Of a DNA stretch of 64,000 bases, positions 62-58,129 are shown piece after piece (the stretch's first letter is position 1; every line of letters begins with the position of its first letter). The stretch covers positions 32,058,554-32,122,553 of the forward strand of contig NC_092562.1 of NCBI RefSeq assembly GCF_037975245.1. The letters run 5' to 3'. Under the pieces are notes generated by a model that was not told where the DNA came from, did no database searches, and worked only from the letters and a program-made list of their open reading frames with translations. The stretch comes from Apostichopus japonicus. Taxonomy: Eukaryota > Echinodermata > Holothuroidea > Aspidochirotida > Stichopodidae. Position numbers and translations under genes: made by a program.

Positions 62-3000
62 AATCTCATGAGCGTTATGACTCGAGTAAGTCATCAACCT
101 ATTATCCAAACGGCACAAAAATAGAAATAGAGTATGGGTCAGGCAGCATGGCTGGATTTCTCAGTACTGATGTAACCACAGTAAGTATGTATTCACTAAC
201 ATTCTCTATAGATTTCATTGAGTTAATCACATTAAATTCAATTAACAAACTGAATTTACCTTATTTCAGATCCCTACCAATCCCATGAGCTTCTAATTAC
301 TCCCTGATCTTTCAACTAATCTCTCAGGTTCCCACCAATCCCCTGAGTTTCTGACCAGATCTCTGAGCCTTACCAATCCCTGGGGCTATCTTCCTTCCAA
401 TGCTTGGAGCTTCATTCCAATCTTATGAGTTTCTATGATAACCTAGGTATCCTATCCAATCTAGATGGCTTCTTACTGTTTCATTATACAGTTACAAGGT
501 GTAGCTATTAAAAACCAGACATTTGCTGAAGCTACACAGGAACCAGGTGAATCATTTGTTATTGCCAAGTTTGACGGTATCCTAGGAATGGGCTTCCCTG
601 AGATTGCTGAGTTAGGAGTGACTCCGGTCTTCAACAATATGATTATTCAGCAGCTCGTAGACCAACCTGTCTTCTCCTTCTATCTTGACAGGTAAAATAT
701 TTCTGTGGTTTACTGGGAAAGTTTAAAAGATGGTGAAGAATATGGAACTGTGAAACTTTAAATTCAATTGTGGATTGTTTCACATTTGAATTACATTACA
801 CGTATAACCAGAAGCTCTCAGGCTGATCCAAATCCAGCCCAAGTATCATGCTTCTGCTTCTGTCTGCTCATAGAATAATAAACTATGTGTTACATAGCAC
901 CATGCTTGGCCAGAGGATCTCCACTTAGTTGAATATAATTTGAACAGTACAGTGGTTTTGAAAGTCCATTATAATGAGAAAGTAAAAAGTTTTACATTTT
1001 GCCATTCTGCTGTGTTTTGTGAAAGGTATGATAAACTACACTGTTAGAAGTGCCAGGAACATATCAACAGCCATAGCTGTTAGTACAATATCAATATAGC
1101 CAATTGTATAATGAATGACAGCAGATTGATAGTACAGGAGTTGAAAATGACACCCTGAATTCATTGTAACACCAGTATTCTGAAGGAAGGTTTAATTAGG
1201 TGATGACATCATACTTTTAAGAGAACTGGTAAAGTAAAGTTGGAGGTACTGACACCAAAGCTGAGGTATTGACATCATTTGATACCCTGTATGTACAGAG
1301 GTTATTAGAAACAAGGTTGAGGTAATGACACCATTAATGTACATATAATGGTGTTGATAATAACAAAGGTGAGGTATTGACACCATTAATATGTAGCATC
1401 ATCACAAAAGCCGTCTATACAGATGCAGTATGAAAAAAATACTAAATGTAGCTCATGGTGTTAAAGTGCTGCTGGGTGAACCAGATCTTTACACTTGATC
1501 ATTGACTGTCTTTTAGAAATGCAAATGATACCCATGGTGGTGAGATGGTGCTAGGTGGATCAGATCCTTACACTTGCTCATTGATTGTCTTTTAGAAATG
1601 CAAATGATACCCATGGTGGTGAGATGGTGCTGGGTGGATCAGATCCTTACACTTGATCATTGATTGTCTTTTAGAAATGCAAATGATACCCATGGTGGGG
1701 AGATGGTGCTGGGTGGATCAGATCCTTACACTTGATCATTGATTGTCTTTTAGAAATGCAAATGATACCCATGGTGGTGAGATGGTGTTGGGTGGATCAG
1801 ATCCTTACACTTGATCATTGATTGTCTTTTAGAAATGCAAATGATACCCATGGTGGTGAGATGGTGCTGGGTGGATCAGATCTTTACACTTGATCATTGA
1901 TTGTCTTTTAGAACTGCAAATGATACCCATGGTGGTGAGATGGTGCTGGGTGGATCAGATCTTTACACTTGATCATTGATTGTCTTTTAGAAATGCAAAT
2001 GATACCCATGGTGGTGAGATGGTGTTGGGTGGATCAGATCCTTACACTTGATCATTGATTGTCTTTAAGAAATGCAAATGATACCCATGGTGGTGAGATG
2101 GTGTTGGGTGGATCAGATCCTTACACTTGATCATTGATTGTCTTCTAGAAATGCAAATGATACCCATGGTGGTGAGATGGTGTTGGGTGGATCAGATCCT
2201 TACACTTGATCATTGATTGTCTTTAAGAAATGCAAATGATACCCATGGTGGTGAGATGGTGTTGGGTGGATCAGATCCTTACACTTGATCATTGATTTGT
2301 CTTCTAGAAATGCAAATGATACCCATGGTGGTGAGATGGTGCTGGGTGGATCAGATCCTTACACTTGATCATTGATTGTCTTCTAGAAATACAAATGATA
2401 CCCATGGTGGTGAGATGGTGTTGGGTGGATCAAATCCTTACACTTGATCATTGATTGTCTTTTAGAAATGCAAATGATACCCATGGTGGTGAGATGGTGT
2501 TGGGTGGATCAAATCCTTACACTTGATCATTGATTGTCTTTTAGAAATGCAAATGATACCCATGGTGGTGAGATGGTGCTGGGTGGACCAGATCCTTACA
2601 CTTGATCATTGATTGTCTTTTAGAAATGCAAATGATACCCATGGTGGTGAGATGGTGTTGGGTGGATCAAATCCTTACACTTGATCATTGATTGTCTTTT
2701 AGAAATGCAAATGATACCCATGGTGGTGAGATGGTGCTGGGTGGACCAGATCCTTACACTTGATCATTGATTGTCTTTTAGAAATGCAAATGATACCCAT
2801 GGTGGTGAGATGGTGCTGGGTGGACCAGATCCTTACACTTGATCATTGATTGTCTTTTAGAAATGCAAATGATACCCATGGTGGTGAGATGGTGCTGGGT
2901 GGATCAGATCTTTACACTTGATCATTGATTGTCTTTTAGAAATGCAAATGATACCCATGGTGGTGAGATGGTGCTGGGTGGATCAGATCTTTACACTTGA

Positions 3001-6000
3001 TCATTGATTGTCTTTTAGAAATGCAAATGATACCCATGGTGGTGAGATGGTGCTGGGTGGATCAGATCCTCAGTATTACACAGGAAACTTCACTTATGTG
3101 GAAGTTTCTAGAGATGGCTACTGGCAGTTCAATGTTGATGGGTGAGTTAATACTATGTGTGAATTGGTCATTACTTCTGTGAGCCACCTTCGTATTTGAT
3201 TTATAGGAATTCTGACCAAACTTCAGGGTAATTTAAACAAGAATAATTGTTAACCATCAAAATCAGGTAAAGTGTTTTATACTTTGTATGAAGTAAATTG
3301 CAGTACTGATTTCATCCTTCAGTAGTGTAGTTATTAAGCCGATGATGGACACAATCTTTAAAGTATAAACAGCTGCTTTATCTTAACTTTAGCAATTAAG
3401 TTTGAAATTATTTAGTGATGGGAGTTACTGAACTCTGCAGTGAGGGAGCAATCAATTTATCTGCCTGAAATGCTCATCATAACAGCAAAATAATATGAGG
3501 AGGAAATACCTGCACATTACAATTCAGTCAGCTGTGACATCTCCTATATGCATGGCAACTGTGACATCTCATATATATATACATGGCAACTGTGACATCT
3601 CATATATACATGGCAACTGTGACATCTCATATATATGGCAACTGTGACATCTCATATATATATACATGGCAACTGTGACATCTCATATATACATGGCAAC
3701 TGTGACATCTCATATATATATACATGGCAACTGTGACATCTCATATATACATGGCAACTGTGACATCTCATATATATGGCAACTGTGACATCTCATATAT
3801 ATATACATGGCAACTGTGACATCTCATATATACATGGCAACTGTGACATCTCATATATACATGGCAACTGTGACATCTCATATATACATGGCAACTGTGA
3901 CATCTCATATATACATGGCAATTGTGACATCTCATATATGCATGGCAACTGTGACATCTCATATATACATGGCAACTGTGACATCTCATATATGCATGGC
4001 AACTGTGACATCTCATATATATACATGGCAACTGTGACATCTCATATGTGCATGGCAACTGTGTCATCTCCTATATGAATGGCAACTGTGACATCTCATA
4101 CTGTATGTACATGGCAACTGTGACATCTCATATATGCATGGCAACTGTGACATCTCATATATATATATACATGGCAACTGTGACATCTCATATATACATG
4201 GCAACTGTTACATATATGCATGGCAATATATATGGTGATGATTACACCATTCTTGATGTGTACCATTGTCATTATTAACAGATATCACGCACATTACAAG
4301 TTCAACCTGGTTAGTCCTTGCTTGGTATATACACGAAAAAACAGTGATTTTCCAGGTATCTCGCGATTTACAAAATAATATTATATTACTCTAGCAGATG
4401 TCAACACAATAAGTTCAGACGGTAAGTGTGACTTACGCTGTCCAAAGTAAGATAAGGACAACAGCTTTCGTTACTTCCTACATCATGTGATACTCGGAAA
4501 ATGTCTGTTTTTTCTGGTTATAAACCAAGGAGTGCTATCTGATTGAACTCGTAATGATTTGTGACAATTCACTATCAATGTTTACTTAATTGAACCATGT
4601 ACTGTAACTTGAATTATTTATAACTATTGTGAATTCTCTCCTAGAATGTTGATTAATGCACAAAAATCTGACTACTGCTCAGGAGGGTGTGAAGCTATAG
4701 CTGATACAGGGACCTCTTTGTTAACAGGACCTAGTAGTGAAATTACCAAACTTAACAACCAGCTTGGTGCCCACTCAGAAATGGGGCAGGTGAGATCCCA
4801 CTAATCATATATAAAGAAATGGGACAGGTGAGATCCCACCTGTGATAACATAAATAGAGAAATGGATCAAATGAGATCCCACCTATCAGATCTTCCTTTC
4901 TTCTGTTATGTGTAAGGATCAAGACAGGTTTGTGTAGCCATATTTGGTTTTGTGTGACACAATTGATAGGTTAAGTACACAGTAAGTATAACTGCATTAT
5001 TATGATTGGTCAGTCAAGTTTTCATTCTAGTTTGTCATGTTCTCTAGGGTTTAGACTATTTTCAAAGATTTTGTTTTTGCCTTTTTCAAACATTTGAAAT
5101 CTCAAAGGTTAAGGGGAAAAATTACTGTGTTGTTGAATTAAAATGGAACCTTGAGGAGGGAGCTGAAAATCTTAAATACAATTAACGCATAGTTCATTTC
5201 TACAAATCTCCATTATCCTACTGTTATTCCCACTTACATATTATGGTTTGGTTTGATGTACTGTTACTTGTTTATGTTTCAAGGTCTTCTAACATCAGTT
5301 GACCTTTGGCATGCTGCTCTTGAAGCTCTAGGTAACAATGTCATTTCACTATGGTTGGGTTTGATATTTATGATTAATGTTCGGTGCATTCCCAAATAAA
5401 GATTTGGTTGTTATTTTTATTCTGATAATTGAGTAAACACAAGATGGCACGTTAGAATGCTTCATTTTATTGTTGGTGACAATTTTGCATGCTCGCATGT
5501 GTGTGTGTTTACTCATAAACTTTGTGGCATGTGGCTGCCCCATAATTAGTAGAAGAACTCGTTGGATGTCAAAGATCATTTAGGGTCAGCAGAGGCCAAA
5601 ACGTGAAAATTTCAAAAAAGCTGTATCTCCAGAACCTGAAAATCAATAGGAGCTCATATATGCATGGTAGGATAGCCTTATGTAGTGTAAAGTGCTTACA
5701 CAGTTTGGTGTAGGTTAGAGTTCATTAAGGGTCCCCAGGGGTAAAGCTATCTCAAGATAGGTTCTCTGCAGTTCTCATATTTGGCATGTAGCTTCCCTAT
5801 TAATAGTACAAAAAACCTTTTGTTTTTGGTGGAGGTCAAAGGTCATTTGGGGTCAGCAGAAGGCAAAATATGAAAATCTCAAAAATGATATCTCCATATT
5901 TCTAACTTAAGTGGCTGTCATATTTTGCATGTGGCTTCCGGCTTTTCAATTGGTTGCTCCATAAGTTGCTGTGCAAACAGCTTATTTATTCACAAGCTGC

Positions 6001-40254: not shown

Positions 40255-43200
40255 ATGTCTGTTGTCAAGTTTCTTCCCATTAATGGATTAAGATCATTTT
40301 GCTGCCAAAGAAATCGTTTTCATACTGCAGCAGTTGTGTGGTCAAGTAAATCAGTGCAGAATTATCAGTTTAAAGAGCTGGACGGTGTGATAGATCCTTA
40401 CTCCTCATCAATCGTGAGGAATGATAGATATAACAGCAAGGCAGAGCAGGAAGTCAAAGAGACATTAGTCAGAGTACGTCATGGTGGCAGTAAATCAGCT
40501 CATGAGAGACACACCATGAAGAACAACAAGTTGTTTGCAAGGGACAGATTGAAAAAGCTCTTAGATCCAGGGACAGAAGAAGACTTTCTAGAAATAGCCC
40601 CATTTGCTGGACTTGGCATGGAGTATGGTGATGTTCCAGCAGCTGGCATTGTGTCAAGTAAGCATTTCATTTATTCTAACTTATTCTCCAAGATGTACCC
40701 AAATATCACAGGGGTGTGCAGGAAACCTTAGTGTACAAATTTTCAATCGAAATTATCATTAATCAAAATTGGCAAATGCAACGGATGACAATTAAATCAA
40801 TGTTCAAGGTTGAAAGAAATGATTTCAAGCATACATGTTGCTTATGTCAAACACTGCGTACTGCAAATATGATATTCTCAAAGCAGAAAAAGGCTAAGGT
40901 TAATTTCTCCTTTAAATCTTGGTCAAATTGAACTCACTTGCTCTATTCTAGTCAGATAGTTACATGAATTTTGAGCAAATTGTATGGCTAACTGGCTTTA
41001 TGGTGTATTTATCCAACAGTTATTGGTCGTATTCACAACAAATGGTGTTTGGTGGGTAACAATGATGCAACAGTGAAAGGTGGTACCAGCTTTCCCATCA
41101 CAGTAGAGAAGCAGATAAGAACTCAGGATATTGCTCTGCAGAACTGCTTGCCGGTGATCTATGGGGTGGACAGTGGAGGAGCATTCCTTCCTCTTCAGGT
41201 AGAATATCAATACCAGAATATCAATCATACATTTAAGGTTTGCTTTTGTCATACTTGTTTGGACCAAATTACTGCAATGTCAGAGTGTATAAGACTGCCC
41301 TACTCTACCCATATAAGCTTCTACTGCAATGCCATAGTGTATAAGACTATCCCTGCCCTACTATTACAATGTCTGGAGTTTACAAGACTATCCCTGCTGA
41401 AGTTGCTATTCAACTAGCTAAGAGTCAGAGTAGCTCCTAGTGTAGTTTTATTGGCTGTGACAGAGGTAGCTTGTTATGGTATAAAGTAGCTCCTAGTGTA
41501 GTTGTATTGGCTGTGACAGAGGTAGCTTGTTATGGTATAAAGTAGCTCCTAGTGTAGTTGTATTGGCTGTGACAGCTTAATTTTAAGGATAATTTGCATT
41601 TTCTTTAAAATGACCGACTGTTTGTCACTATGACCTGAAAAGTTATATTGAAAAGGACAGTAAGCAACTTTTCAATTTACTGATTGTTGGGGTTTAACTT
41701 AGTCAGTTAAAAGAAATCCATACATGACAGAAATGAATTGGTTAGATCTCACTTATTGGCAGGGAAAGTGTTTAATATTGGCCTGCATAGTTGGCAATTA
41801 TTATTGGACTATAGATAATCCCTCAAGTGGACAAAATACCTGCTTACACCAGTGCCGTAGTTCACATTACACATTTGACATGTTCTCTTTCTTCAACAGG
41901 CTTCTATCTTTCCAGATAGGAAACATGGCGGTAGAGTATTTTACAATGAAGCTATCTTATCCTCTCTAGGAATTCCACAGGTTAGTGAAATAGTGAATCC
42001 CTCTCTGATATCCTGGGCTATCACACTGTTTGTATTTGCCTGCTAGATCTGAATATTCATAATATGTGGGGTCATTGGTCAAATACTGCCTACCATCTGC
42101 TGCCCTCTAGTTTACCAAGGTCTTTCAAAATATTGGATTAAATTAGTTGAAAGTTTCCACATAATTTCCATACTGTGTGTTACTCTGCATAGGAACATGC
42201 ACAGTAAGTTCCCTACTCTTCATTCATCAAGGGTAGTGTTTGCACTGGGTATCCGGGTACCCACCCAACGCGATACTACCCGGCTCCTAAATTATGACAC
42301 GAATCCAACGCAGTGTGTGAATTTTTTTTTTTTATTGCAAACCCAATCGTTCATTTGTCTACACAAACCTTGTTATTGCCCTTACACCTTGTCCTCGCAT
42401 ACCGTAGCTTGTCCTCGCATACCGTAGCTTGTCCTCGCATACCGTAGCTTGTCCTCGCATACCGTAGCTTGTCCTCGCATACCGTAGCTTGTCCTCGCAT
42501 ACCGTAGCTTGTCCTCGCATACCGTAGCTTGTCCTCGCATACCGTAGCTTGTCCTCGCATACCGTAGCTTGTCCTCGCATACCGTAGCTTGTCCTCGCAT
42601 ACCGTAGCTTGTCCTCGCATACCGTAGCTTGTCCTCGCATACCTTAGCTTTTCCTCGCATACCGTAGCTTGTCCTCGCATACAGTAGCTTGTCCTCACAT
42701 AGCTTGTGCTCACTTATTTCCAATTATTGAAGCATAGTTTTCACCTTTTTACCTTTGTATGGTAACTCTAAGCTAGGTTAGAAGGATTGACAGTTCCAAA
42801 TTCATAGTTTCATTTCCTTTTCTGTGAAACAGATTGCAATTGTATGTGGTTCCTGTACAGCAGGTGGTGCATATGTGCCTACCATGGCAGAAGAAACAGT
42901 TATAATTGATAAAACTGGAACCATTTTCCTTGGTGGACCACCTCTAGTATTTGCTGCTACTGGTGAAAAGATCAGTTCTGAAAATCTTGGGGGAGCTACA
43001 CTCCATTGCAAGTAAGTTGACAAGCTATCTATTGTTTCATTATTAACTCATGTAGTTTACTGAGAAAAGACTTTGAAAGTGCGGAATGGGATGCAGAAGT
43101 TAGCCAAGGTGGAATGCCGCAGGAGTGTTAGCTCAGTGGTTAATGCCTCTGCCTTTCAAGCAAGATTAATGTCGTCCAGTTACAAAGTTGTTGAAAATTG

Positions 43201-46200
43201 ACATAAACATAATCATGGACATTAAATATGAATCTAATAGACTGACTTTGGACAGCTTGCAGCTTTGATAAGCCAATGATGGCTTCTTCGCGAGTTCCTG
43301 ATTGCAGGAGGTTTTAAAATACATAGATACAATACATACAGATGTTAGCCAAGGAATGGCATGCAGATGTGAGTCAGGGTTGGGTGTGGTGGGGATGTGG
43401 GTTGAGGGGGGATAGGATACAGATGTGCATCAGAGTGGGATTGGGTGAATATGTGGGTCAGGGTGGGATGGGTAAATATGTGGTTGGAGGGGCATAGGAT
43501 TCAGATGTGGGTCAGGGTGGGATGGGGTGAAGATGTGGTTAGAGAGGGGATAGGATGCAGATGTGAGTCAGGGTGGGATGGGGTGAAGATGTGGGTCAGG
43601 GTGGGATGGATTAAGATGTGGGTGGAGGGGAAAAGGATGCAGATGTGAGTCAGGGTGGGATTGGGTGAAGATGTGGGTGAAAGGGGTATAGTATGCAGAT
43701 GTGAGTCGGAGTGGGATAAGGTGAAGATGTGGGTCAGGGTGGATGGGTAAATATGTGGTTGGAGGCGCATAGGATGCAGATGTGGGTCAGGGTGGGATGG
43801 GGTGAAGATGTGGGTGAAGGGGGATAGGATACAGATGTGAGTCAGGGTAGGATCGGGTGAAGATGTGGTTGGAGGGGGGGGATAGGATGCAGATGTGGGT
43901 CAGGGTGGGGTGGGGTGTAGGTGTGGGTGAAAGGGGAAGGATGCAGATGTGGGTGAAGAAGAATAGGATGCAGATGTGAGTCAGGATGGGATGGGGTGAA
44001 GATGTGGGTCAGGATGGGATGGGTAAAGATGTGGGTGGAGGGGGGATAGGATGCAAATGTGAGTCAAGGTGGGAGGGGTTGAAGATGTGGGTGAAGGGGG
44101 ATAGGATGCAGATGTGAGTCAGGGTGGGATGGGGTGAAGATGTGGGTCAGGGTGGGATGGGTGAAGATGTAGGTGGAGGGGGTATAGGATGAGTCAGGAT
44201 GGGATGGGGTGAAGATGTGGGTGGAGGGGGATAGGATGCAGTTGTTAGTCAGGGTGGGATGGGATCCAGAAATGGTCGGAGGGGTAGGATGCAGATGTGT
44301 GCCAGGTGATCTTTGGTTCTTTAACATTTGATGTGCTTGAGATCATCTGGGTTGTATTCTGAATTTGTTTATATGTCCCACTATATCACTTTTGTATTAA
44401 ACAGTGTGCCATACCAGCACTAGTTGTTGCTGCTGCTAGTGTACAGTACAAACCAGTCCTATGTGCAGTTTCTGGCGAGTGTTCCTTCTAACACTATGTG
44501 TTGGTACTGATTAACTTTGTGTGTTATACCAAGTTGGTATGACACACTAGCAAAGACCAGCATATAGTGTTATTAGGGTACAGTAGCACAAAAAAGTGCC
44601 CAACACTTTGTGTTTTTGCTAGGGTACTGTAGTAAAAATGTTTGCTGGTACTGGCTAGTAATTACATCTCCACCAGCCTGTTTGGTATACAAAAGTTGGT
44701 TGTGCTACGAATAGTTTGCATATACGGTACAATGTGAGCTGTTGTACTCATTTCTCTGATGTTGTTACAATGTGAGTGGTTTAACTACTATGATTGCATT
44801 ATTTATTGGCATGAGTGTTTGTACTAATATATTTGGTTTTGTTGAATGTTTTACAGAGTGAGTGGTTGCACAGATTACTTCGCTAGAACTGAAGATGAAG
44901 CATGGCAGTTTGGAAGGGACATTGTATCAACCTTAGATGTGGTACCCCCTGAGGATCCAGTAGAGTGGGAAGAACCCCTCTATGACCAGGAAGAGCTGAG
45001 AATGTTGGCACCAACTCCCTATGATCAGTCATATTATTCCATCAAGAAAGTAAGCCTGTCCTAGTAGTCTGCATTTAACTCCTCCTCACTTTAAAAGGAT
45101 ATTCAAATCTATTTATTAAGTACCTTTGAATTCATTTCACTTCAATTAGTTTTTTAATAGTTTGCATTAATATGTTTTTCATATGCAAACTTACAAATTC
45201 ATTATTTTTCTTTTGTGTAGTTATATAAGTGGTAAGTATGTGAAGATACAGAAGAACATATTACAATCAATGCTGAAAATAATATTTATTACTATGCTTT
45301 CTTTCTTTGAGATTCTTGCCAGATTAGTGGATGGAAGTAAAATGCATGAGTTTAAATCCCTTTACGGACCAACTCTTATCACAGGTTTCGCACACATAAA
45401 AGGGTAAGGACAACATTCATGCTGCATTAACATGTTCCTTTCTTCTGAAATGTTGGCTGGGTGTTTGTAATATTGTTACCAATAATATGTAATATTTAGA
45501 TTAGATGTTATAATCAGTATGTTTATGTACAATGTAATAGTATTACTTAGATGTTGTGTTTCTAATGTTCATGTAATGTGTTACAGTATTAAGATGTTAT
45601 ATGTAGTATGTTGACATAATGTGTTAGTACTAACATGTTATGTTAGTAATTGCTATATTTAATAGTATTAAATGTACTAAATGTTATGTTAGTAATTGCT
45701 ATATTTAATAGTATTAAATGTACTAACATGTTATGTTAGTAATTGCTATATTTAATAGTATTAAATGTACTAACATGTTATGTTATTAATTGCTATATTT
45801 AGTAGTATATAAATGCTATGTTGAGTATGTTTATTATTATGTAACAGTATTAAGATGTTATATGTAGTATGTTGACATAATGTGTTATAGTACTAACATG
45901 TAATGTTAGTAATTGCTATATTTAGTAGTATATTGAGTATGTTTATTATTATGTGTAACAGTATTAAGATGTTATATGTAGTATGTTGATATAATGTGTT
46001 ATAGTACTAAAATGTTATGTTAGTAATTGCTATATTTAGTAGTATATAAATGCTATGTTGAGTATGTTTATTATTATGTAACAGTATTAAGATGTTATAT
46101 GTAGTATGTTGATATAATGTGTTATAGTACTAAAATGTTATGTTAGTAATTGCTATATTTAGTAGTATATAAATGCTATGTTGAGTATGTTTATTATTAT

Positions 46201-49200
46201 GTGTAACAGTATTAAGATGTTATATGTAGTATGTTGATATAATGTGTTATAGTACTAAAATGTTATGTTAGTAATTGCTATATTTAGTAGTATATAAATG
46301 CTATGTTGAGTATGTTTATTATTATGTGTAACAGTATTAAGATGTTATATGTAGTATGTTGATATAATGTGTTATAGTACTAAAATGTTATGTTAGTAAT
46401 TGCTATATTTAGTAGTATATAAATGCTATATTGAGTATGTTTATTATTATGTGTAACAGTATTAAGATGTTATATGTAGTATGTTGATATAATGTGTAAT
46501 AGTACTAAATGTAATGTTAGTAATTGCTATATTTAATAGTATATACACGCTATATTGAATATGTTTATGTCTTCCAGGTCAAGTGTCAGTATTTTGATGG
46601 TGACTATTTTACAAGAATAACTAAGGTTTAGTCACAAGTTTCAAATCATTAATATCCATGTACTATTTATTATCGACTGGGTATGTGATTTACAAATTTA
46701 CTCATATTATTTCGGCAGCCATATTGTTGGAATTCTTGCCAATGATGGGACCATTACAGCAGATGCAGCTCTCAAAGGGGCTCATTTTATCTCAATATGT
46801 CAACAACGTCACATTCCTCTGGTTTTTCTTCAAAATGTAACATCTGAGGAAGAAGTTAGTAGCCCAGAAGAAGCTGGTGAATTATTGAAAGCCAGAGCTA
46901 AACTACTGATGGCCACAGCTTCATCTACAGTACCAAAGATAACCCTAATTGTTGGGAATAGTTTTGGACCTAATAACTACATCATGGTAAGACCATCATT
47001 ATCTACTTCATAATCATATTAGCACATAAGGATGTGAAGACATTACCCTATAGAACTATATCTTGTAATATCCACTTGTACCTCTGTGATTGTCAGTTCA
47101 AGTACTTAAGTATTGCTTTTCAACTTGTTACTTGCTTGTCAACGCATTGTACAGTAAGCTTCTGCCTGGTGTTCATATTGCAGTATACAGGCTGGTGCAT
47201 CAGGTGTGCTGTGTCTAGGGATGCTTCATTGTACAGTTAGCTTCTGCCTGGTGTTCATATTGTGGTATACAAGCTGGTGCATCAGGTGTGCTGTGTCTAG
47301 GGATGCTTCATTGTACAGTTAGCTTCTGCCTGGTGTTCATATTGCAGTATACAGGCTGGTGCATCAGGTGTGCTGTGTCTAGGGATGCTTCATTGTACAG
47401 TTAGCTTCTGCCTGGTGTTCATATTGCAGTATACAGGCTGGTGCATCAGGTGTGCTGTGTCTAGGGATGCTTCATTGTACAGTTAGCTTCTGCCTGGTGT
47501 TCATATTGTGGTATACAAGCTGGTGCATCAGGTGTGCTGTGTCTAGGGATGCTTCATTGTATAGTTAGCTTCTGCCTGGTGTTCATATTGCAGTATACAG
47601 GCTGGTGCATCAGGTGTGCTGTGTCTAGGGATGCTTCATTGTACAGTTAGCTTCTGCCTGGTGTTCATATTGCAGTATACAGGCTGGTGCATCAGGTGTG
47701 CTGTGTCTAGGGATGCTTCATTGTACAGTTAGCTTCTGCCTGGTGTTCATATTGCAGTATACAGGCTGGTGCATCAGGTGTGCTGTGTCTAGGGATGCTT
47801 CATTGTACAGTTAGCTTCTGCCTGGTGTTCATATTGTGGTATACAAGCTGGTGCATCAGGTGTGCTGTGTCTAGGGATGCTTCATTGTATAGTTAGCTTC
47901 TGCCTGGTGTTCATATTGCAGTATACAGGCTGGTGCATCAGGTGTGCTGTGTCTAGGGATGCTTCATTGTACAGTTAGCTTCTGCCTGGTGTTCATATTG
48001 CAGTATACAGGCTGGTGCATCAGGTGTGCTGTGTCTAGGGATGCTTCATTGTACAGTTAGCTTCTGCCTGGTGTTCATATTGCAGTATACAGGCTGGTGC
48101 ATCAGGTGTGCTGTGTCTAGGGATGCTTCATTGTACAGTTAGCTTCTGCCTGGTGTTCATATTGTGGTATACAAGCTGGTGCATCAGGTGTGCTGTGTCT
48201 AGGGATGCTTCATTGTATAGTTAGCTTCTGCCTGGTGTTCATATTGCGGTATACAGGCTGGTGCATCAGGTGTGCTGTGTCTAGGGATGCTTCATTGTAC
48301 AGTTAGCTTCTGCCTGGTGTTCATATTGCGGTATACAGGCTGGTGCATCAGGTGTGCTGTGTCTAGGGATGCTTCATTGTACAGTTAGCTTCTGCCTGGT
48401 GTTCATATTGCAGTATACAGGCTGGTGCATCAGGTGTGCTGTGTCTAGGGATGCTTCATTGTACAGTTAGCTTCTGCCTGGTGTTCATATTGTGCTATAC
48501 AAGCTGGTGCATCAGGTGTGCTGTGTCTAGGGATGCTTCATTGTACAGTTAGCTTCTGCCTGGTGTTCATATTGTGGTATACAAGCTGGTGCATCAGGTG
48601 TGCTGTGTCTAGGGATGCTTCATTGTACAGTTAGCTTCTGCCTGGTGTTCATATTGTGGTATACAAGCTGGTGCATCAGGTGTGCTGTGTCTAGGGATGC
48701 TTCATTGTACAGTTAGCTTCTGCCTGGTGTTCATATTGCAGTATACAGGCTGGTGCATCAGGTGTGCTGTGTCTAGGGATGCTTCATTGTACAGTTAGCT
48801 TCTGCCTGGTGTTCATATTGTGGTATACAAGCTGGTGCATCAGGTGTGCTGTGTCTAGGGATGCTTCATTGTACAGTTAGCTTCTGCCTGGTGTTCATAT
48901 TGCAGTATACAGGCTGGTGCATCAGGTGTGCTGTGTCTAGGGATGCTTCATTGTACAGTTAGCTTCTGCCTGGTGTTCATATTGTGCTATACAAGCTGGT
49001 GCATCAGGTGTGATTGGTTTATTCAATGCATCAGTGATGCAGTCGTTTTCAAATTTTATCGAGAAAGTGTATTTTACGCTTGTGATATTTTTAACATTTG
49101 TTTACGTTTCGTTGGATTGGCCTATCACTATGCCTAATGTTAAGCCTAACCTACACCGTTAGAGTAGGCAGGAGCTCATCGATCTCCGTACAATACCGCG

Positions 49201-52200
49201 GTCTATACCGTTGAGCCATGAGACTATCGACCGAATAATTACAAATGGGATTACTGCTACAAATTGCTTTAAAAATCACCGGACAAAGAGAGGAACCAAG
49301 GGGGTGAAAAGGCGGCGGATACCAGTAATTATTACTTCACCTAATTATGAGCTTTCCCGTGGACCTGGATCAAACACTGACAATCTGATTGCTATTGATT
49401 GTACAAAAGCCCCTAAACCCATCCAAACTGTTGTGGGAACCGTGACCATACTAGGTCATATCAACAAAACCGCGGTATCGAAAATCAAAATCTATTGACA
49501 GTAAAGCGAATTTCCTCTTTTCACCGCAATCGCAAACTCTCCTTCAGCCTATGGAATGCCCGGCATCAACAACAAAATTGCGGTCTTGTGTAGTAGCATT
49601 GTTGAGAATGATACAGACATTTTCGCTGTAACAGAAACCTGGATTGGGGAACATCGACAACGTGCTGTGAGCGAATTTAAAGCGTCATTGAGCGGTTATA
49701 ATGTTTATCAGAGTTCCCGCGCAAACTGTAAAGGAGGTGGAGTAGCGCTCATTATTCGCTCCGATTATAAGGTGAAGAAGATGAACTCTGGATTGTTCAA
49801 ATCCTTCGAACATGTTGATCTGACTGTCACAGTCAATGACGTCACCACACGCATCGCACTTATCTACCGGCCCCCACCGTCAAGAACCAATGGTTGCAAA
49901 ACTGAAGACTTTCTGGTTGAATTTGCATCATTTTTGGAGGTTTTAGTAATTGCACCAGGTCGCCTCATTATTCTTGGAGATTTCAACATCCATGTCGACA
50001 ACGCTACAAATGGTGACGCCTTGAAATTCCATGATTTACTCTGTAGTATGAATCTTGTACAACTTGTTCGTGGATCGACCCATGCTAGCGGTCATACTTT
50101 GGACTTGGTAATCACCCGCTCGATCGAATCACCAATCTGCACCATCAGTGATGTCACCAATGACAACAGTATACCTTCTGATCATAGCTTGATAAAATTC
50201 ATCACAGACATTTCACGACCCCACGCGACAAAAACTACATGTGTTATACGGAACAACAACATCTTACCATGACGAATGCCAGAGAGCTAAAACTCAGTAC
50301 CACCGTTCTCGCATACAGTCCGCCAACACCAGGAAGCTGTTTGCCGTGGTTGATGAGATCACAGGATACAAGAAGTCAACTGGTGCCATCCTACCTAAGC
50401 ACAACGATCCCCAGCAAATGGCGCAAGATTTCTCTGACTTTTTCTGTGGGAAGATCAGGAAATTACGTGATACATTCCATTATGTTACAAAGCCAAGTTT
50501 ACCACCGTGCCCACCTAGTCATAGCTTTTCGAACTTCAAGCCAATTACCCGGGACGACACGACCAAACGTATTTCAGCTATGAACTTGAAATCTTCAGCG
50601 CTCGATCCGATGCCAACTCAGCTCGTTAAACTTTGCCTACCAGAACTAGTGGATGATCTCGTTAACATTGCCAACACTTCCTTCGAAGCAGGGACTGTTC
50701 CCCGACGTCATAAACTCGCTCTTGTCAGACCATTATTGAAAAAGCCCGGACTGGATCCTGATGTTTTATCAAATTATCGTCCCGTTTCCAACCTTTTATT
50801 TGAACATAAATTTTTAGAGAACATGTGTTTTAATCAAATTGATGAATATTTTTACCATTTCTCTCTTTATTCGAAATTTCAATCTGCATACCGAAGAAAC
50901 CATAGCACAGAAACCGCGTTGCTTCGTGTAAGAAATGACATTCTAGTTTCAATGGACAATTATAAAGAGTGCATTTTAGTCCTACTCGATCTTACCGCCG
51001 CATTCGATACAATTGACCACAAATTTTACTGCAGCGTGTGGAGCATCGGTTTGGCATAAATGGTATTGCTTTAAAGTGGTTCGATTCATATCTTCGAGGA
51101 CGTACTCAACGTGTCTGTATTGACAATTGTTATTCGGACGATGAACCATTATTTTGCGGTGTACCACAGGGAAGCGGTCTTGGGCCGATTCTTTTTACCT
51201 TGTATACATCCCCACTCGAAGACATTATTTTAGCCAATGATATTGACTTTATGCTTTTTGCCGATGATACACAACTGTATTTTTCGTGTAAAAATCTATC
51301 TGACTGGACATTCATACCTGAAAAATGCATAGATGATATTCGTGAGTTGATGGCATCAAATCGACTTGTACTCAATGATAGCAAAACAGAAGTAATTCAT
51401 TTTCACAGTAAATTCCGAAAAGTTCAAGCAGACATATCTAGTTTCAAAGTTGGTGTTACTCATGTTAAACCCATTTCCGTTGTCAGAAATTTAGGAGTGC
51501 AATTTGATGAATTCAGTTCTATGTCAAGTCATGTTTCAAAAATTTGTCAGTCAGCATCATACTCATTGTATCGTATTAGGAAAATTCGTAAGCTCTTAGA
51601 TCGCACAAGCACAGAAAGATTAATTCATGCATTTGTTACATCGCACCTTGATTATTGTAATAGTTTATTATATGGGATGCTTCATGGTACAGTTAGCTTC
51701 TGCCTGGTGTTCATATTGTGGTATACAAGCTGGTGCATCAGGTGTGCTGTGTCTAGGGATGCTTCATGGTACAGTTAGCTTCTGCCTGGTGTTCATATTG
51801 TGGTATACAAGCTGGTGCATCAGGTGTTCTGTGTCTAGGGATGCTTCATTGTACAGTTAGCTTCTGCCTGGTGTTCATATTGTGGTATACGAGCTGGTGC
51901 ATCAGGTGTGCTGGGTAAAGGGATGCTTTTTCAAGTGAACCATCTTTTATGACAAGGTTTACTTGAACTTGTTGGATAAAGGTGAAAACCACATCCATGA
52001 CATGGTCCTTGAGTATCATCATTGGTGTCATGGTCCTTGAGTATCACCATTGGTGTCTTGGTCTGTGAGTATCACCATTGTTATCCTGTTCCTTAAGTAT
52101 CATCATTGGTGTCATGGTCCTTAAGTATCATCATTGGTGTCATGGTCCTTGCGTATCACCATTGGTGTCTTGGTCTGTGAGTATCACCATTTTTATCCTG

Positions 52201-55200
52201 TTCCTTAAGTATCATCATTGGTGTCATGGTCCTTAAGTATCATCATTGGTGTCATGGTCCTTAAGTATCATCATTGGTGTCATGGTCCTTGAGTATCATC
52301 ATTGGTGTCATGGTCCTTGAGTATCATCATTGGTGTTCCATCATGAGTTTGATACCTGTTCATGAGTATCATGGATACTATCATGGATACTGGTCTCTAG
52401 GTATCATACAGATGTCCATAGTGTTATGTATTCCAATCTTAAGTTTGATGCGATCCTCTTTCCTATTCGTAGTGTGGTCGTTCAATGGATCCAAACTTTT
52501 TATTCTCCTGGCCACTGGCACAGATTGGTCTAATGACACCAACTCAGGCAGCCAAAGCAATGAAACAGGTAATAGCTCCATTATAACATCTCTTCCATTA
52601 AAAGTGCATGAATCATGTTTTAGAATGGGTATTTAAGACATGTTCATGTGGATGGGGAGGTGTGGAGGGGTATTGCTATCATGCTGGGGCAGTTTTCTTT
52701 GATGTATCTATTGTGAAATGATATCAGGGGTGATGTTCCCATGCAACTTATATCAAAGGATGGTGTGTGCTAATGATCTCTTTAAGTGATGATAGTAGGT
52801 GATGATATCAGGGACGGTGTTCTTAGGCTTAAATCAATGGTGTTTTGTGCTAATTATGTATTGTTAATTAACTATATGATAATTCAATTTTGATCTGTCA
52901 CATCCAGTGCATTCAATCTCAGTAGTCTAAAATGATTATGGACATATACACTCAGAAAGTATTGAAGCTGAGAGTGCTTTAGTCGTATTAAAATCTTTAC
53001 TTTTATTATATAGCTGTCAAATGATCCTGCATCTGAAGAAGTCCTTGTCAGTGTCTTCAAGGAAAAGTCTTGTGCCTTGTATTCATCTGCAAACCTATGG
53101 GATGATGGTATCATACTGCCACAAGAGACTAGAAGGGTAAGTAGGCCATTGTAGTTCCTTAGGGATGATGGTATCATACTGCCACAAGAGACTAGGAGGG
53201 TAAGTAAGCCATTGTAGTTCCTTAGGGATGATGGTATGAACCTGCCACAAGAGACTAGGAGGGTAAGTAGGCCATTGTAGTTCCTTAGGGATGATGGTAT
53301 CATACTACCACAAGAGACTAGGAGGGTAAGTAAGCCATTGTAGTTCCTTAGGGATGATGGTATGAACCTGCCACAAGAGACTAGGAGGGTAAGTAGGCCA
53401 TTGTAGTTCCTTAGGGATGATGGTATCATACTACCACAAGAGACTAGAAGGGTAAGTAAGCCATTGTAGTTCCTTAGGGATGATGGTATGATACTGCCAC
53501 AAGAGACTAGGAGGGTAAGTAAGCCATTGTAGTTCCTTAGGGATGATGGTATGAACCTGCCACAAGAGACTAGGAGGGTAAGTAGGCCATTGTAGTTCCT
53601 TAGGGATGATGGTATCATACTGCCACAAGAGACTAGAAGGGTAAGTAAGCCATTGTAGTTCCTTAGGGATGATGGTATGAACCTGCCACAAGAGACTAGG
53701 AGGGTAAGTAGGCCATTGTAGTTCCTTAGGGATGATGGTATCATACTACCACAAGAGACTAGGAGGGTAAGTAAGCCATTGTAGTTCCTTAGGGATGATG
53801 GTATCATACTGCCACAAGAGACTAGGAGGGTAAGTAGGCCATTGTAGTTCCTTAGGGATGATGGTATCATACTGCCACAAGAGACTAGGAGGGTAAGTAG
53901 GCCATTGTAGTTCCTTAGGGATGATGGTATCATACTACCACAAGAGACTAGGAGGGTAAGTAAGCCATTGTAGTTCCTTAGGGATGATGGTATGAACCTG
54001 CCACAAGAGACTAGGAGGGTAAGTAGGCCATTGTAGTTCCTTAGGGATGATGGTATCATACTGCCACAAGAGACTAGAAGGGTAAGTAAGCCATTGTAGT
54101 TCCTTAGGGATGATGGTATGAACCTGCCACAAGAGACTAGGAGGGTAAGTAGGCCATTGTAGTTCCTTAGGGATGATGGTATCATACTGCCACAAGAGAC
54201 TAGAAGGGTAAGTAAGCCATTGTAGTTCCTTAGGGATGATGGTATGAACCTGCCACAAGAGACTAGGAGGGTAAGTAGGCCATTGTAGTTCCTTAGGGAT
54301 GATGGTATCATACTACCACAAGAAACTAGAAGGGTAAGTAAGCCATTGTAGTTCCTTAGGGATGATGGTATGAACCTGCCACAAGAGACTAGGAGGGTAA
54401 GTAGGCCATTGTAGTTCCTTAGGGATGATGGTATCATACTACCACAAGAGACTAGGAGGGTAAGTAAGCCATTGTAGTTCCTTAGGGATGATGGTATGAA
54501 CCTGCCACAAGAGACTAGGAGGGTAAGTAGGCCATTGTAGTTCCTTAGGGATGATGGTATGAACCTGCCACAAGAGACTAGGAGGGTAAGTAAGCCATTG
54601 TAGTTCCTTAGGGATGATGGTATGAACCTGCCACAAGAGACTAGGAGGGTAAGTAAGCCATTGTAGTTCCTTAGGGATGATGGTATGATACTGCCACAAG
54701 AGACTAGGAGGGTAAGTAGGCCATTGTAGTTCCTTAGGGATGATGGTATCATACTGCCACAAGAGACTAGAAGGGTAAGTAAGCCATTGTAGTTCCTTAG
54801 GGATGATGGTATGAACCTGCCACAAGAGACTAGGAGGGTAAGTCGGCCATTGTAGTTCCTTAGGGATGATGGTATCATACTACCACAAGAGACTAGAAGG
54901 GTAAGTAAGCCATTGTAGTTCCTTAGGGATGATGGTATTATACTGCTACAAGAAACTAGAAGGATAAGTAAGCCATTGTAGTTCCTTAGGGATGATGGTA
55001 TGATACTGCCACAAGAGACTAGGAGGGTGAGTAGGCAATTGTAGGTTTTTAGGGGTGATGGCCTCCTTACCCTTGTTGTTTCTTGTAGGGCAATGCTTGC
55101 TGTTCCTCTGATTGTTTGAATTCCTAGCTGTTTGGTAGAGAATTTCAATTCACACAGAAGCAAGAAATGTTGTCTAGAACAAACTATTTCAGATCTATGA

Positions 55201-58129
55201 ACAATAATCTCCACTTACTCTCATCTCTGAATTTTAATGAAATTTGTTACGTTTTTAGTCATGAGAAATTAGTTAACACAGCTCCACAATATAAATGTTT
55301 CGGTGCATAATTAAGTTTTAAGGAGTGTCTATCAGGCTATAAGTAAAACTGTGAAGATTTTGGATTTTTTTCCCTATCCTCTAGAAGTACTTCCAGCTAT
55401 TTCTCTATCATATAGAAGTACTTCCAGCTATTTCTCAATCATATAGAAGTACTTTCAGCTATTTCTCTATCATATAGAAGTACTTCCAGCTATTTCTCTA
55501 TCATATAGAAGTACTTCCAGCTGTTTCTCTATCATATAGAAGTACTTCCAGCTATTATTCTATCATACAGAAGTACTTCCAGCTATTTCTCTATCATATA
55601 GAAGTACTTCCAACTATTTCTCTATCATATAGAAGTACTTCCAGCTATTTCTCTATCATATAGAAGTACTTCCAGCTATTTCTCTATCATATAGAAGTAC
55701 TTCCTGCTATTTCTCTAGCATATAGAAGTACTTCCAGCTATTATTCTATCATATAGAAGTACTTCCAGCTATTTCTCTATCATATAGAAGTACTTCCAGC
55801 TATTTCTCTATCATATTGAAGTACTTCCAGCTATTTCTCTATCATATAGAAGTACTTCCAGCTATTTCTCTATCATATAGAAGTACTTCCAGCTATTTCT
55901 CTATCATATAGTACTTCCAGCTATTTCTCTATCATATAGAAGTACTTCCAGCTGTTATTCTATCATATAGAAGTACTTCTAGATATTTCTCTATCATATA
56001 GAAGTACTTCCAGCTATTTCTCTATCATATAGAAGTACTTCCAGCTATTATTCTATCATATAGAAGTACTTCCAGCTATTTCTCTATCATATAGAAGTAC
56101 TTCCAGCTATTTCTCTATCATATAGAAGTACTTCCAGCTGTTATTCTATCATATAGAAGTACTTCCAGCTATTTCTCTATCATATAGAAGTACTTCCAGC
56201 TATTTCTCTATCATATAGAAGTACTTCCGGCTGTTATTCTATCATATAGAAGTACTTTCAGCTATTTCTCTATCATATAGAAGTACTTTCGGCTGTTATT
56301 CTATCATATAGAAGTACTTTCGGCTATTTCTCTATCATATAGAAGTACTTCCAGCTATTTCTCTTTCATATAGAAGTACTCTCGGCTATTTCTCTATCAT
56401 ATAGAAGTACTTCTAGCTATTTCTCTATCATATAGAAGTACTTCTAGCTATTTCTCTATCATATAGAAGTACTTCCAGCTATTTATCTATCACATAGAAG
56501 TACTTCCTGCTATTTCTCTAGCATATAGAAGTATTTCCAGCTATTATTCTATCATATAGAAGTACTTCCAGCTATTTCTCTAGCATATAGAAGTACTTCC
56601 AGCTATTTCTCTAGCATATAGAAGTACTTCCAGCTATTTCTCTATCATATAGAAGTACTTCCAGCTATTTCTCTATCATATAGAAGTACTACCAGCTATT
56701 TCTCTATCATATAGAAGTACTTCCAGCTATTTCTCTATCATATAGAAGTACTTCCAGCTATTTCTCTATCATATAGAAGTACTTCCAGCTATTTCTCTAT
56801 CATATAGAAGTACTTTCAGCCATTTCTCAATCATATAGAAGTACTTCCAGCTATGTCTCTATCATATAGAAGTACTTCCAGCTATTTCTCTATCATATAG
56901 AAGTACTTCCAGCTATGTCTCTATCATATAGAAGTACTTCTAGCTATTTCTCTATCATATAGAAGTACTTCCAGCTATTTCTCTATCATATAGAAGTACT
57001 TCCAGCTATTTCTCTATCATATAGAAGTACTTCCAGCTGTTATTCTATCATATAGAAGTACTTCCAGCTATTTCTCTATCATATAGAAGTACTTCCTGCT
57101 ATTTCTCTAGCATATAGAAGTACTTCCAGCTGTTATTCTATCATATAGAAGTACTTCCAGCTATTTCTCTATCATATAGAAGTACTTCCAGCTATTTCTC
57201 TATCATATAGAAGTACTTCCAGCTATTTCTCTATCATATAGAAGTACTTCCAGCTATTTCTCTATCATATTGAAGTACTTCTAGCTATTTCTCTATCATA
57301 TAGAAGTACTTCCAGCTATTTCTCTATCATATAGAAGTACTTCCAGCTATTTCTCTATCATATAGAAGTACTTCCAGCTATTTCTCTATCATATAGAAGT
57401 ACTTCCAGCTATTTCTCTATCATATAGAAGTACTTCCAGCTATTTCTCTATCATATAGAAGTACTTCCAGCTATTATTCTATCATATAGAAGTACTTCCA
57501 GCTATTATTCTATCATACAGAAGTACTTCCAGCTATTTCTCTATCATATAGAAGTACTTCCAGCTATTTCTCTATCATATAGAAGTACTTCCAGCTATTT
57601 CTCTATCATATAGAAGTACTTCCAGCTATTTCTCTATCATACAGAAGTACTTCCAGCTATTATTCTATCATATAGAAGTACTTCCAGCTATTATTCTATC
57701 ATACAGAAGTACTTCCAGCTATTTCTCTATCATATAGAAGTACTTCCAGCTATTTCTCTATCATATAGAAGTACTTCCAGCTATTTATCTCTCATATAGA
57801 AGTACTTCCAGCTATTACTTTATCATATAGAAGTACTTCCAGCTATTTCTCTATCATATAGAAGTACTTCCAGCTATTTCTCTATCATATTGAAGTACTT
57901 CTAGCTATTACTCTATCATAAAGAAGCTGCATTTTTTGTTAAATCAATTACCAGTACTGAGCTATTGTTGTATCATATAATGCCGTCACATTTGCTGAGG
58001 AACATGTGTTTTTTCTGTTCTTTCCTGTAGGTTTTGGCCCAGTGCTTGAGCATCACCTCACAAAAGAAATATTGGTATAAAAATGATACCACCAATAATA
58101 CACACAAATTTGGGATCTTTAGAATGTGA
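40255..58129 (+). CDS. Methylcrotonoyl-CoA carboxylase beta chain-like protein, mitochondrial, complete, 10 coding exons
   Basis: Coding exons: 40255-40657, 41020-41198, 41900-41980, 42833-43011, 44857-45049, 45312-45403, 46719-46986, 52473-52568, 53014-53136, 58031-58129; phases fit throughout and give 570 aa, against about 563 for human MCCC2 (from memory). Residues 1-25 are basic and free of acidic residues, suiting mitochondrial import. Carboxyltransferase landmarks in order: [72 protein letters not shown] (about 227-242), [72 protein letters not shown], and the C-terminal FGIFRM. The family beta subunit moves a carboxyl group from biotin to 3-methylcrotonyl-CoA in leucine breakdown. Two usually conserved parts are altered: the segment normally like [20 protein letters not shown] reads [20 protein letters not shown] (417 on), and GSYGAGNYGM reads [10 protein letters not shown] (456-465). 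It may therefore be a divergent paralogue rather than the true MCCC2; no symbol is given for that reason. Confidence 0.88.
41423..41578. repeat. About 56-bp tandem repeat, 2.7 units
   Basis: Copies of 'agtagctcctagtgtagttg' + 'tattggctgtgacagaggta' + 'gcttgttatggtataa' lie in the second coding intron. Confidence 0.85.
42380..42705. repeat. 20-bp minisatellite (cttgtcctcgcataccgtag), about 16 units
   Basis: Very homogeneous; only the last units vary. On the minus strand frames stay open for up to ~120 codons because three units equal 60 bp. The unit does not resemble any neighbour. Third coding intron of the MCCC2-like gene. Confidence 0.95.
43110..43343 (+). mobile_element. tRNA-derived SINE, copy 2, with target-site duplication
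   Basis: The head 'aggagtgttagctcagtggt' + 'taatgcc' carries the A-box-like TTAGCTCAGTGG. The B-box region is missing relative to copy 1 at 29636-29828 (deletion after 'caagca'). The body shares 'gtcgtccagttacaaagttg' and 'aatcatggacattaaatatg' with copy 1. The end is 'ttttaaaatacatagatac'. The 11-bp word gttagccaagg stands at 43099-43109 and 43344-43354, bracketing the element as a target-site duplication. Confidence 0.78.
43360..44310 (+). repeat. G-rich minisatellite with G-quadruplex motifs on the transcribed-sense strand
   Basis: Irregular units built from 'gatgtgggtcagggtgggat' + 'ggggtgaa' and 'gatgtgggtggaggggggat' + 'aggatgca'. Several units contain GGGTCAGGGTGGGATGGGG, which fits the G3+N1-7 quadruplex rule, for example near 43508, 43788 and 43897. 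The G-rich strand is the sense strand of the gene, so the intron RNA would carry the motifs. Fourth coding intron. Confidence 0.9.
44311..44856. other. Intron sequence, nothing recognised
   Basis: Loose repeats of 'tgttggtactg' and 'acactatgtgtt'-like words around 44440-44640, otherwise featureless up to the exon at 44857. Confidence 0.4.
45590..46555. repeat. AT-rich tandem repeat of about 122-125 bp, ~6 units, with shorter subunits at the left
   Basis: The unit contains 'tgttatgttagtaattgcta' + 'tatttagtagtatataaatg' + 'ctatgttgagtatgtttatt' and 'gatgttatatgtagtatgtt'. At 45640-45790 a shorter ~60-bp subunit (taatagtattaaatgtacta) is repeated three times. Sixth coding intron. Confidence 0.88.
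47130..49012. repeat. 82-bp minisatellite, left part, ~23 units, four-unit higher-order repeat
   Basis: The unit is 'gcttcattgtacagttagct' + 'tctgcctggtgttcatattg' + 'cagtatacaggctggtgcat' + 'caggtgtgctgtgtctaggg' + 'at'. Alternate forms read 'tggtatacaagc'. The variant 'gtatagttagc' recurs at about 47559, 47888 and 48216, i.e. every four units (328 bp). The array stops inside a unit at 'gcatcaggtgtg', where the LINE begins. Confidence 0.95.
49013..51672 (+). mobile_element. CR1/L2-type LINE inserted in the 82-bp array; ORF2 interrupted and lacking its 3' end
   Basis: Endonuclease part (49556-50272): [61 protein letters not shown]. Reverse-transcriptase part (50241-51059, then 51038-51670): [77 protein letters not shown], and the catalytic FADDTQLY. 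Frame changes occur near 49558, 50260 and 51045, so it is not functional. It stops right after [11 protein letters not shown], where the family normally continues for another ~150 residues plus a 3' UTR; the 82-bp array resumes there. The frame 49211-49498 upstream may be a remnant of the 5' region. It lies in the seventh coding intron. Confidence 0.9.
51673..51930. repeat. 82-bp minisatellite, right part, ~3 units
   Basis: The array resumes at 'gggatgcttcatggtacagt' almost in phase with its left part; about nine bases of the interrupted unit are missing. The first two units here carry 'catggtac' instead of 'cattgtac'. Confidence 0.93.
51990..52345. repeat. 28-bp minisatellite (ccttgagtatcatcattggt gtcatggt), ~13 units
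   Basis: Units vary between ccttgag, ccttaag, gtctgtgag and ttatcctg. It precedes the exon at 52473 in the seventh coding intron. Confidence 0.92.
52473..52568 (+). CDS. MCCC2-like exon encoding CGRSMDPNF... (easily missed)
   Basis: The acceptor 'tttcctattcgtag' ends at 52472. The exon is in phase 0 and encodes [20 protein letters not shown] then [12 protein letters not shown], leaving through gtaata. It corresponds to the CGRAY.PRFLYIWPNA region of MCC beta subunits. The longer open frame overlapping here is in a different phase and is not the gene. Confidence 0.88.
52569..53013. other. Eighth coding intron, no array
   Basis: Contains a loosely repeated 'gatgatatcagggatgatgt'-like word near 52710-52830 and otherwise nothing recognised. 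Confidence 0.45.
53014..53136 (+). CDS. MCCC2-like exon adjoining the donor array
   Basis: The acceptor 'tttattatatag' ends at 53013. The exon encodes [20 protein letters not shown] then [20 protein letters not shown] and R, phase 0 on both sides. The LWDDGII.P..TR motif is a standard part of carboxyltransferase beta subunits. Its last 37 nt are the part amplified in the array that follows. Confidence 0.9.
53099..55050 (+). repeat. 63-bp minisatellite, 31 units, made of an exon end plus its splice donor
   Basis: The unit is 'ggatgatggtatcatactgc' + 'cacaagagactagaagg' (the last 37 nt of the exon 53014-53136) + 'gtaagtaggccattgtagtt' + 'ccttag'. Donor GT positions run from 53137 (authentic) to 55027, exactly 30 x 63 bp. 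The exon-derived part alternates between 'tcatactgcc' and 'tgaacctgcc', giving a partial dimer pattern. The 'gttccttag' before each copy also creates an AG, so every unit resembles a 37-nt exon with both borders. Reading through the authentic donor meets TAG within seven codons. The 776-codon antisense open frame (52884-55214) exists only because 63 is divisible by three. Confidence 0.95.
55375..57935. repeat. 31-bp minisatellite (atagaagtacttccagctat ttctctatcat), ~82 units
   Basis: Fairly homogeneous, with recurring variants (ttattctatcat, ttctagc, gtacttcctgc, tctagcat). The pyrimidine tracts and CTAT words are not followed by AG in a way that forms acceptors. It occupies most of the ninth coding intron and ends about 100 bp before the final exon at 58031. 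Confidence 0.96.

What the first reader, a model, noticed from the sequence alone, without database searches (positions are those of the whole stretch)
53014..55050. Thirty-one tandem copies of an exon end plus its 5' splice site in the MCCC2-like gene
The 63-bp unit contains the last 37 nt of the exon, a consensus donor GG|gtaagt, and an AG just before the next copy. The authentic donor at 53137 is followed by 30 decoys up to 55027 at exact 63-bp spacing. Each unit looks like a complete 37-nt micro-exon; including one would shift the frame, and extending the exon meets TAG within seven codons.
Basis: partly seen in the sequence, partly recalled or inferred. Interest (0 to 1): 0.85.

Follow-up and report, generated by a model that had tools for sequence, protein, structure and literature searches.

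The report
Minisatellite copying one exon's end
In what looks like a sea cucumber genome, a repeat array has copied the last 37 letters of an exon and its splice signal 31 times, a kind of structure known from amphioxus ('mirages'), which offers a natural test of how cells pick one splice site among many nearly identical ones.

Summary
Window 53100-55052 holds 31 head-to-tail 63-bp units without an indel; copies 1-29 keep AGG|GTAAGT, copy 30 has ATAAGT, copy 31 GTGAGT. Copy 1 is the real end of exon 9 of a complete 10-exon, 570-aa gene resembling methylcrotonoyl-CoA carboxylase beta. It is not alone: an aspartic protease gene in the same window has 20 copies of a 3' splice site plus exon start, and a kinase gene pair elsewhere has 12 and 11 donor copies. 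Amphioxus has such structures, called 'mirages'. [quoted passage not shown] Donor strength cannot single out copy 1: 28 of 31 copies share one U1 pairing energy. Most likely exon definition picks the site nearest across the exon; a decoy or micro-exon brings an early stop. No RNA data, reads or genome-wide count were available. Probably a tolerated by-product of minisatellite growth, valuable as a natural splicing experiment.

The parts
53100..55052 (+). 63-bp x 31 array; each unit = last 37 nt of exon 9 + first 26 nt of the intron; donors at 53137 + 63n
53014..53136 (+). exon 9 (123 nt, 41 aa) of the MCCC2-like gene; its last 37 nt are copy 1 of the array
   Evidence: protein collinear with MCC beta across both junctions
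58031..58129 (+). exon 10, last exon (VLAQCL...FGIFRM stop)
40255..58129 (+). MCCC2-like gene, 10 exons, 9 GT-AG introns, open for 570 aa
55369..57926 (+). second, purely intronic array in the same intron, 31 bp x 82.6
1470..3070 (+). mirror case: 79-bp x 20 array, each unit = 3' splice site + first 52 nt of exon 3 of an aspartic protease (cathepsin D-like) gene; authentic acceptor is the last copy (exon starts 3019)
   Evidence: Pfam Asp 1.4e-48 on the joined exons
4777..4888 (+). decayed small case: about 2.8 copies of 43 bp at the donor of exon 4 of the same gene; one near copy (24 of 30) 38 bp downstream
   Evidence: (minus-strand row 59113-59224)

Best explanation
A minisatellite whose repeat unit straddles an exon-intron boundary, the structure called a 'mirage' in amphioxus. 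It grew by tandem duplication of an exon end with its donor (shown: the array; inferred: the process; growth partly in two-unit steps is suggested by the strongest self-match at a lag of two units). The first copy stays the working exon end, and the 30 others lie in the intron. Nearly all copies are equally good donors by U1 pairing, so the choice must come from position: with an intron of 445 nt before and 4894 nt after the exon, exon definition pairs the 3' splice site with the nearest donor across the exon, which is copy 1 (inferred from a published minigene experiment with two identical donors). The same rule picks the last acceptor in the mirror array, where 'first transcribed, first used' would pick a decoy. 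Decoy use would bring an early stop. The array is therefore most likely a tolerated by-product in a genome with many minisatellites, with at most a little leakage into truncated or decayed transcripts.
For: Unit anatomy, 31 of 31 in register; copies 30 and 31 carry 3 and 5 substitutions found in no other copy, against 1 among copies 1-29 (recounted from its table). Lag-2 self-similarity among inner copies (1.81 mean mismatches against 4.22 at lag 1). With copy 1 as exon end the gene is open to its stop, E 1.6e-142 to a carboxyltransferase and 5.7e-139 to human MCCC2; the decoy readings checked run into stops. U1 duplex energy -11.6 in 28 of 31 copies, copy 1 included; predicted local accessibility 0.012 for copy 1, median 0.010 for decoys. 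Other cases: acceptor array, kinase pair. Published mirages with normal splicing by RT-PCR. Cross-exon proximity rule: with two identical CAG/guaagu donors and flanking introns of 365 nt the upstream one was used exclusively. Intron lengths.
Against: No RNA evidence of any kind. The proximity rule was tested in human-type minigenes with two donors, not 31, and an older in-vitro result quoted in the same paper favours the donor nearest across the intron. Copy 1, the other edge of the array, is not more divergent than inner copies (2 differences from the consensus). Naming the species rests on assembly statistics and mitochondrial gene order, with small mismatches (see full report), not on a sequence match to a named record.
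Confidence: 0.78

Rival explanations
1. A regulatory device: decoy donors bind U1 and divert a set share of transcripts into stop-bearing forms, so copy number tunes the output of the gene.
For: 28 of 31 donors have the same U1 energy, -11.6, stronger than each of the 18 other donors checked in the window (-4.2 to -11.1); stops on both wrong paths in the copies counted (31 of 31 and 30 of 30).
Against: Homogenisation within an array explains the sameness of donors without selection: among copies 1-29, 24 of 26 intronic and 31 of 37 exonic columns are invariant, not the donor alone. Amphioxus mirages are reported not to disturb splicing.
Confidence: 0.1
2. The array is tied to the birth or shift of this intron: tandem duplication of an exon piece made a new intron, which still holds the repeats, as proposed for amphioxus globins.
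For: The intron is absent at the matching place of the canonical MCCC2 of the same genome, whose last exon runs through [21 protein letters not shown]. Human MCCC2 has its last intron after c.1574, in codon 525, which matches the last intron of the canonical gene and lies 43 nt upstream in this alignment; the window gene lacks that one. The amphioxus model predicts repeats in new introns.
Against: By eye the gene shares only about 3 of its 9 intron positions with the canonical gene, so a private intron is nothing special here. No significant similarity of the intronic part of the unit to exon 10 or to the canonical last exon (970 and 506 of 1000 shuffles as good), of the array tail to the exon 10 region (68 of 1000), or of 55063-55369 to exon 10 (286 of 1000).
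Confidence: 0.08
3. Assembly error: collapsed or multiplied reads.
For: Tandem arrays are where assemblies fail; no reads seen.
Against: Assembly statistics fit a HiFi assembly with 14.7-kb mean reads and 64-fold cover, far longer than the 1.95-kb array; copies differ by many shared variants; similar arrays at three other places.
Confidence: 0.03

Closest known systems
'Mirage' minisatellites of amphioxus (Adh3, globins BflGb6 and BflGb9, troponin C; PGBD5 duplications)
   Same: Tandem units spanning an exon-intron boundary, at 5' or 3' splice sites, with splice signals kept in many copies and a boundary copy left out of homogenisation (passages of PMC3087553; one passage of PMC3902484).
   Different: Another phylum (echinoderm, inferred); 31 and 20 copies here against 6 and 3 in the two haplotypes of BflGb6; normal splicing not tested here.
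[quoted passage not shown] potato RdRp case)
   Same: Tandem duplication across a splice boundary (passages of PMC4974935).
   Different: Here an existing boundary is multiplied inside one intron; no sign that the repeats made the acceptor in use.
Cross-exon proximity rule, minigenes with two identical 5' splice sites (Carranza, Shenasa and Hertel 2022)
   Same: Identical donors compete for one exon between introns of several hundred bases or more (abstract and passages of PMC9225289).
   Different: A works-like comparison only: two donors in transfected minigenes, 31 here.

Membership tests
Amphioxus-type mirage | tandem unit holds both exonic and intronic sequence across a real splice boundary | tested here: met
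   37 nt exon + 26 nt intron, exon confirmed by homology
Amphioxus-type mirage | can affect 5' or 3' boundaries | tested here: met
   donor arrays at 53100 and in L025/L026, acceptor array at 1470-3070
Amphioxus-type mirage | many copies keep splice signals | tested here: met
   29 of 31 GTAAGT and 1 GTGAGT; 20 of 20 AG, 18 of 20 with T before it; 11 of 12 and 11 of 11 GTGAGC
Amphioxus-type mirage | inner copies homogenised, a boundary copy not | tested here: met
   met at the 3' end only: copies 30 and 31 carry 3 and 5 private substitutions; copy 1 is not divergent
Amphioxus-type mirage | regular splicing not disturbed | not testable with these tools
   no RNA data
Amphioxus-type mirage | copy number varies between haplotypes or somatically | not testable with these tools
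   one assembly only; the kinase paralogues have 12 and 11 copies
Amphioxus-type mirage | found in a cephalochordate (where described; not part of the definition) | tested here: not met
   mitochondrial gene order and assembly statistics point to an echinoderm, by inference
Intron gain by tandem duplication | intron sequence recognisably derived from neighbouring exon, supplying the sites in use | tested here: inconclusive
   30 exon-end copies lie in the intron, but the intronic part of the unit and the array tail show no significant similarity to exon 10

The most novel reading that the evidence does not exclude
Exon-edge minisatellites are a standing, genome-wide class in this echinoderm, with donor and acceptor arrays of 10-30 nearly identical sites in many ordinary genes, and their length acts as a slow, heritable dial on splicing output through low-level decoy use.
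Probability: 0.12. Interest if true: 0.75.

Novelty: new member of a known kind. Interest (0 to 1): 0.5.

Why it matters
How the splicing machinery chooses among equal splice sites is usually studied with two sites in artificial genes. Here nature offers up to 31 nearly equal donors and 20 nearly equal acceptors in genes of one animal. Both array types need the site that gives the shortest exon, which separates exon definition from 'nearest across the intron' (fails for both) and from 'first transcribed, first used' (fails for acceptors). It would also take mirages beyond amphioxus, so tandem growth over splice boundaries may be common wherever minisatellites are rife, and it warns gene annotators.

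Tried and rejected
Micro-exon reading: weak decoy acceptors, 26-nt spacers. Donor strength or local RNA folding singling out copy 1: no difference. Origin of the intronic 26 nt from exon 10 coding sequence: not significant. Antisense 776-aa open frame across the array: follows from a 63-bp unit with no stop in that frame; not pursued. An automatic search for boundary arrays in the window and the fetched loci gave 20 candidate rows; besides the two window arrays and the first kinase array I judged the other rows unconvincing by eye or wrong-strand readings, without a homology test; it missed the second kinase array and did not flag the decayed donor as a boundary case. Pfam on the exon 9 frame alone gave nothing (frame started one base late); on exons 9+10 only sub-threshold matches, Carboxyl_trans E 0.022. 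One peptide and the query used a wrong frame for exon 8; corrected. A genome-wide scan for repeated GGTAAGT did not complete, so there is no genome-wide count.

Full report
Anatomy. The array 53100-55052 has 31 units of 63 bp in strict register; 15 of 63 columns vary, and most variation lies in a few shared variants. Units two apart are more alike (mean 1.81 mismatches) than neighbours (4.22), over the inner copies. Copies 1-29 carry AGG|GTAAGT, copy 30 AGG|ATAAGT, copy 31 AGG|GTGAGT. One place in the genome matched this array (that search skips very common words).

The gene. Ten exons with nine GT-AG introns from 40255 to 58129 join into an open frame of 570 aa that matches carboxyltransferase chains over residues 66-549 (E 1.6e-142) and human MCCC2 over residues 64-545 (E 5.7e-139). 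The last two junctions, the one at the array included, lie inside the aligned stretch. So copy 1 as exon end and 58031 as next exon start is the reading that gives the protein. Decoy extension meets TAG at the sixth codon in 31 of 31 copies; the micro-exon start that gives TGA at its second codon is in 30 of 30 decoy copies.

Not a lone case. In the same window, 1470-3070 repeats the 3' splice site and the first 52 nt of an exon of an aspartic protease gene 20 times; AG is kept in 20 of 20, with T before it in 18 of 20; the authentic site is the last copy. The donor of that gene's next exon has one near copy 38 bp on (24 of 30 bases) and, by eye, a decayed third. I set 38 exon edges of three genes in the window by homology and eye: 2 lie in arrays and 3 have a near copy (24 of 30 bases within 5 kb), against 151 of 300 random positions, positions inside arrays included. 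Arrays thus mostly spare exon edges, as selection would have it. One edge (acceptor of exon 6 of the MCCC2-like gene) was set 11 bases off; corrected, it has no near copy. The name CLCC1-like that I use for the third gene is recalled and comes from no call; its one exon tested in Pfam had no match above cut-off.

Sample outside the window. A kinase family search listed 134 matches (131 of 1182 candidates scored). I fetched 20 regions of 10 kb, chosen by me from the upper part of the list and mostly short matches of split genes; they hold 23 of the 134 matches. Four more regions around three carboxyltransferase genes hold 15 of the 18 matches (the other 3 are in the window). Of these 38 exon matches four had a near copy at an edge (25 of 30 within 3 kb); two are real boundary arrays, one was an AT repeat and one lay in a small array upstream of its exon (my reading of the rows and). 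The two real ones are a pair of related kinase genes on one contig, 12 copies (11 GTGAGC, 1 GTGGGC) and 11 copies (11 GTGAGC), unit about 70 bp with 63 bp of exon. Two blocks before the arrays are 94-95% alike, another of 867 columns 88.7% (list cut at 60 rows). The label CDK10/11-like is recalled; Pfam gives Pkinase 1.8e-36. So this sample holds one independent event, too few for a rate; the window itself was chosen because of its array. More kinase matches could not be fetched.

Which genome. 671,581,487 bases in 35 contigs. The published Apostichopus japonicus assembly has 671,643,915 bases in 34 scaffolds, scaffold N50 29,647,521, chromosomes of 18.21 to 46.02 Mb, HiFi reads of mean 14.7 kb at 64-fold (passages of PMC10344927); contig C4 here is 29,643,483 and C23 18,203,763. 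Against an exact match: the totals differ by about 62 kb, and four contigs here are exactly 10,000 bases while the published shortest contig is 18,165. The 35th contig, 16,099 bp, holds mitochondrial frames in the order cox1, nad4L, cox2, atp6, cox3, nad3, nad4, nad5, nad6 (reverse), cob, trnF, then by eye 12S, tRNAs, nad1, nad2 and 16S; genes identified from recall. I recall this as the sea urchin and sea cucumber order. The species is an inference.

How one donor is chosen. U1 duplex energy is -11.6 kcal/mol in 28 of 31 copies, -10.0 in copy 28, -8.0 in copy 30, -11.7 in copy 31; 18 other donors in the window range from -4.2 to -11.1. Predicted accessibility of copy 1 (0.012) is like the decoy median (0.010). 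So the site itself does not tell. The published cross-exon proximity rule does: with long introns the sites nearest across the exon pair, and in minigenes with two identical CAG/guaagu sites and flanking introns of 365 nt the upstream one was used exclusively (abstract and passages of PMC9225289). The same paper recalls that in short introns the sites nearest across the intron pair. The introns here are 445 and 4894 nt, and 2327 and 1503 nt for the acceptor case. Application to this animal is inference.

Relation to known work. Tandem repeats spanning splice boundaries are called mirages in amphioxus: Adh3, globins, troponin C, and similar duplications in PGBD5 (passages of PMC3087553; one passage of PMC3902484). 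The former reports RT-PCR with regular splicing, 6 and 3 units in two haplotypes of BflGb6, and a model of intron gain. My text searches (1 paper; 2; 1; 20 of 29 listed; 2) listed no title or abstract that reports such structures in an echinoderm; listings only, open-access papers only.

Intron history. The canonical MCCC2 of this genome reads [38 protein letters not shown] in one exon, with its last intron inside the preceding arginine codon; human MCCC2 has its last intron after c.1574, in codon 525, which is that arginine (variant table of PMC3495011, passages; numbering). The window gene lacks that intron and has the array-bearing one 43 nt further on. By eye about 3 of its 9 introns match the canonical ones, so I draw no conclusion on intron gain.

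Noticed in passing
window 1-64000: About half of the window (50.3%) lies in tandem arrays of period 10 or more and 1.9 or more copies; the 20 kinase regions hold 8.2% in arrays of 2.5 or more copies, so the window is unusually rich.
   Followed up: partly
window 30422-30667: A 53-bp x 4.7 array starts at the fourth base of an intron, right beside the donor of an exon ending at 30418, without including the exon.
   Followed up: partly
window 47145-49012 and 51674-51928: One 82-bp minisatellite is split by a stretch with long frames that look like a non-LTR reverse transcriptase (recognised by eye only).
   Followed up: no
window 46719-46986: The MCCC2-like protein reads [19 protein letters not shown] where the best-matching chain reads NISGFMVGRDYEAGGIAK (alignment); it may be a changed or inactive enzyme beside the canonical gene on contig C4.
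   Followed up: partly
window 52887-55214, minus strand: A 776-aa open frame runs antisense across the whole array, since the 63-bp unit has no stop in that frame; probably chance.
   Followed up: no
L025 4117-4951 and L026 4206-4970 (minus-strand genes): Two related kinase genes on contig C11, 3.3 Mb apart, both carry the same exon-edge array with 12 and 11 copies, so the array is probably older than their duplication, unless gene conversion spread it.
   Followed up: yes
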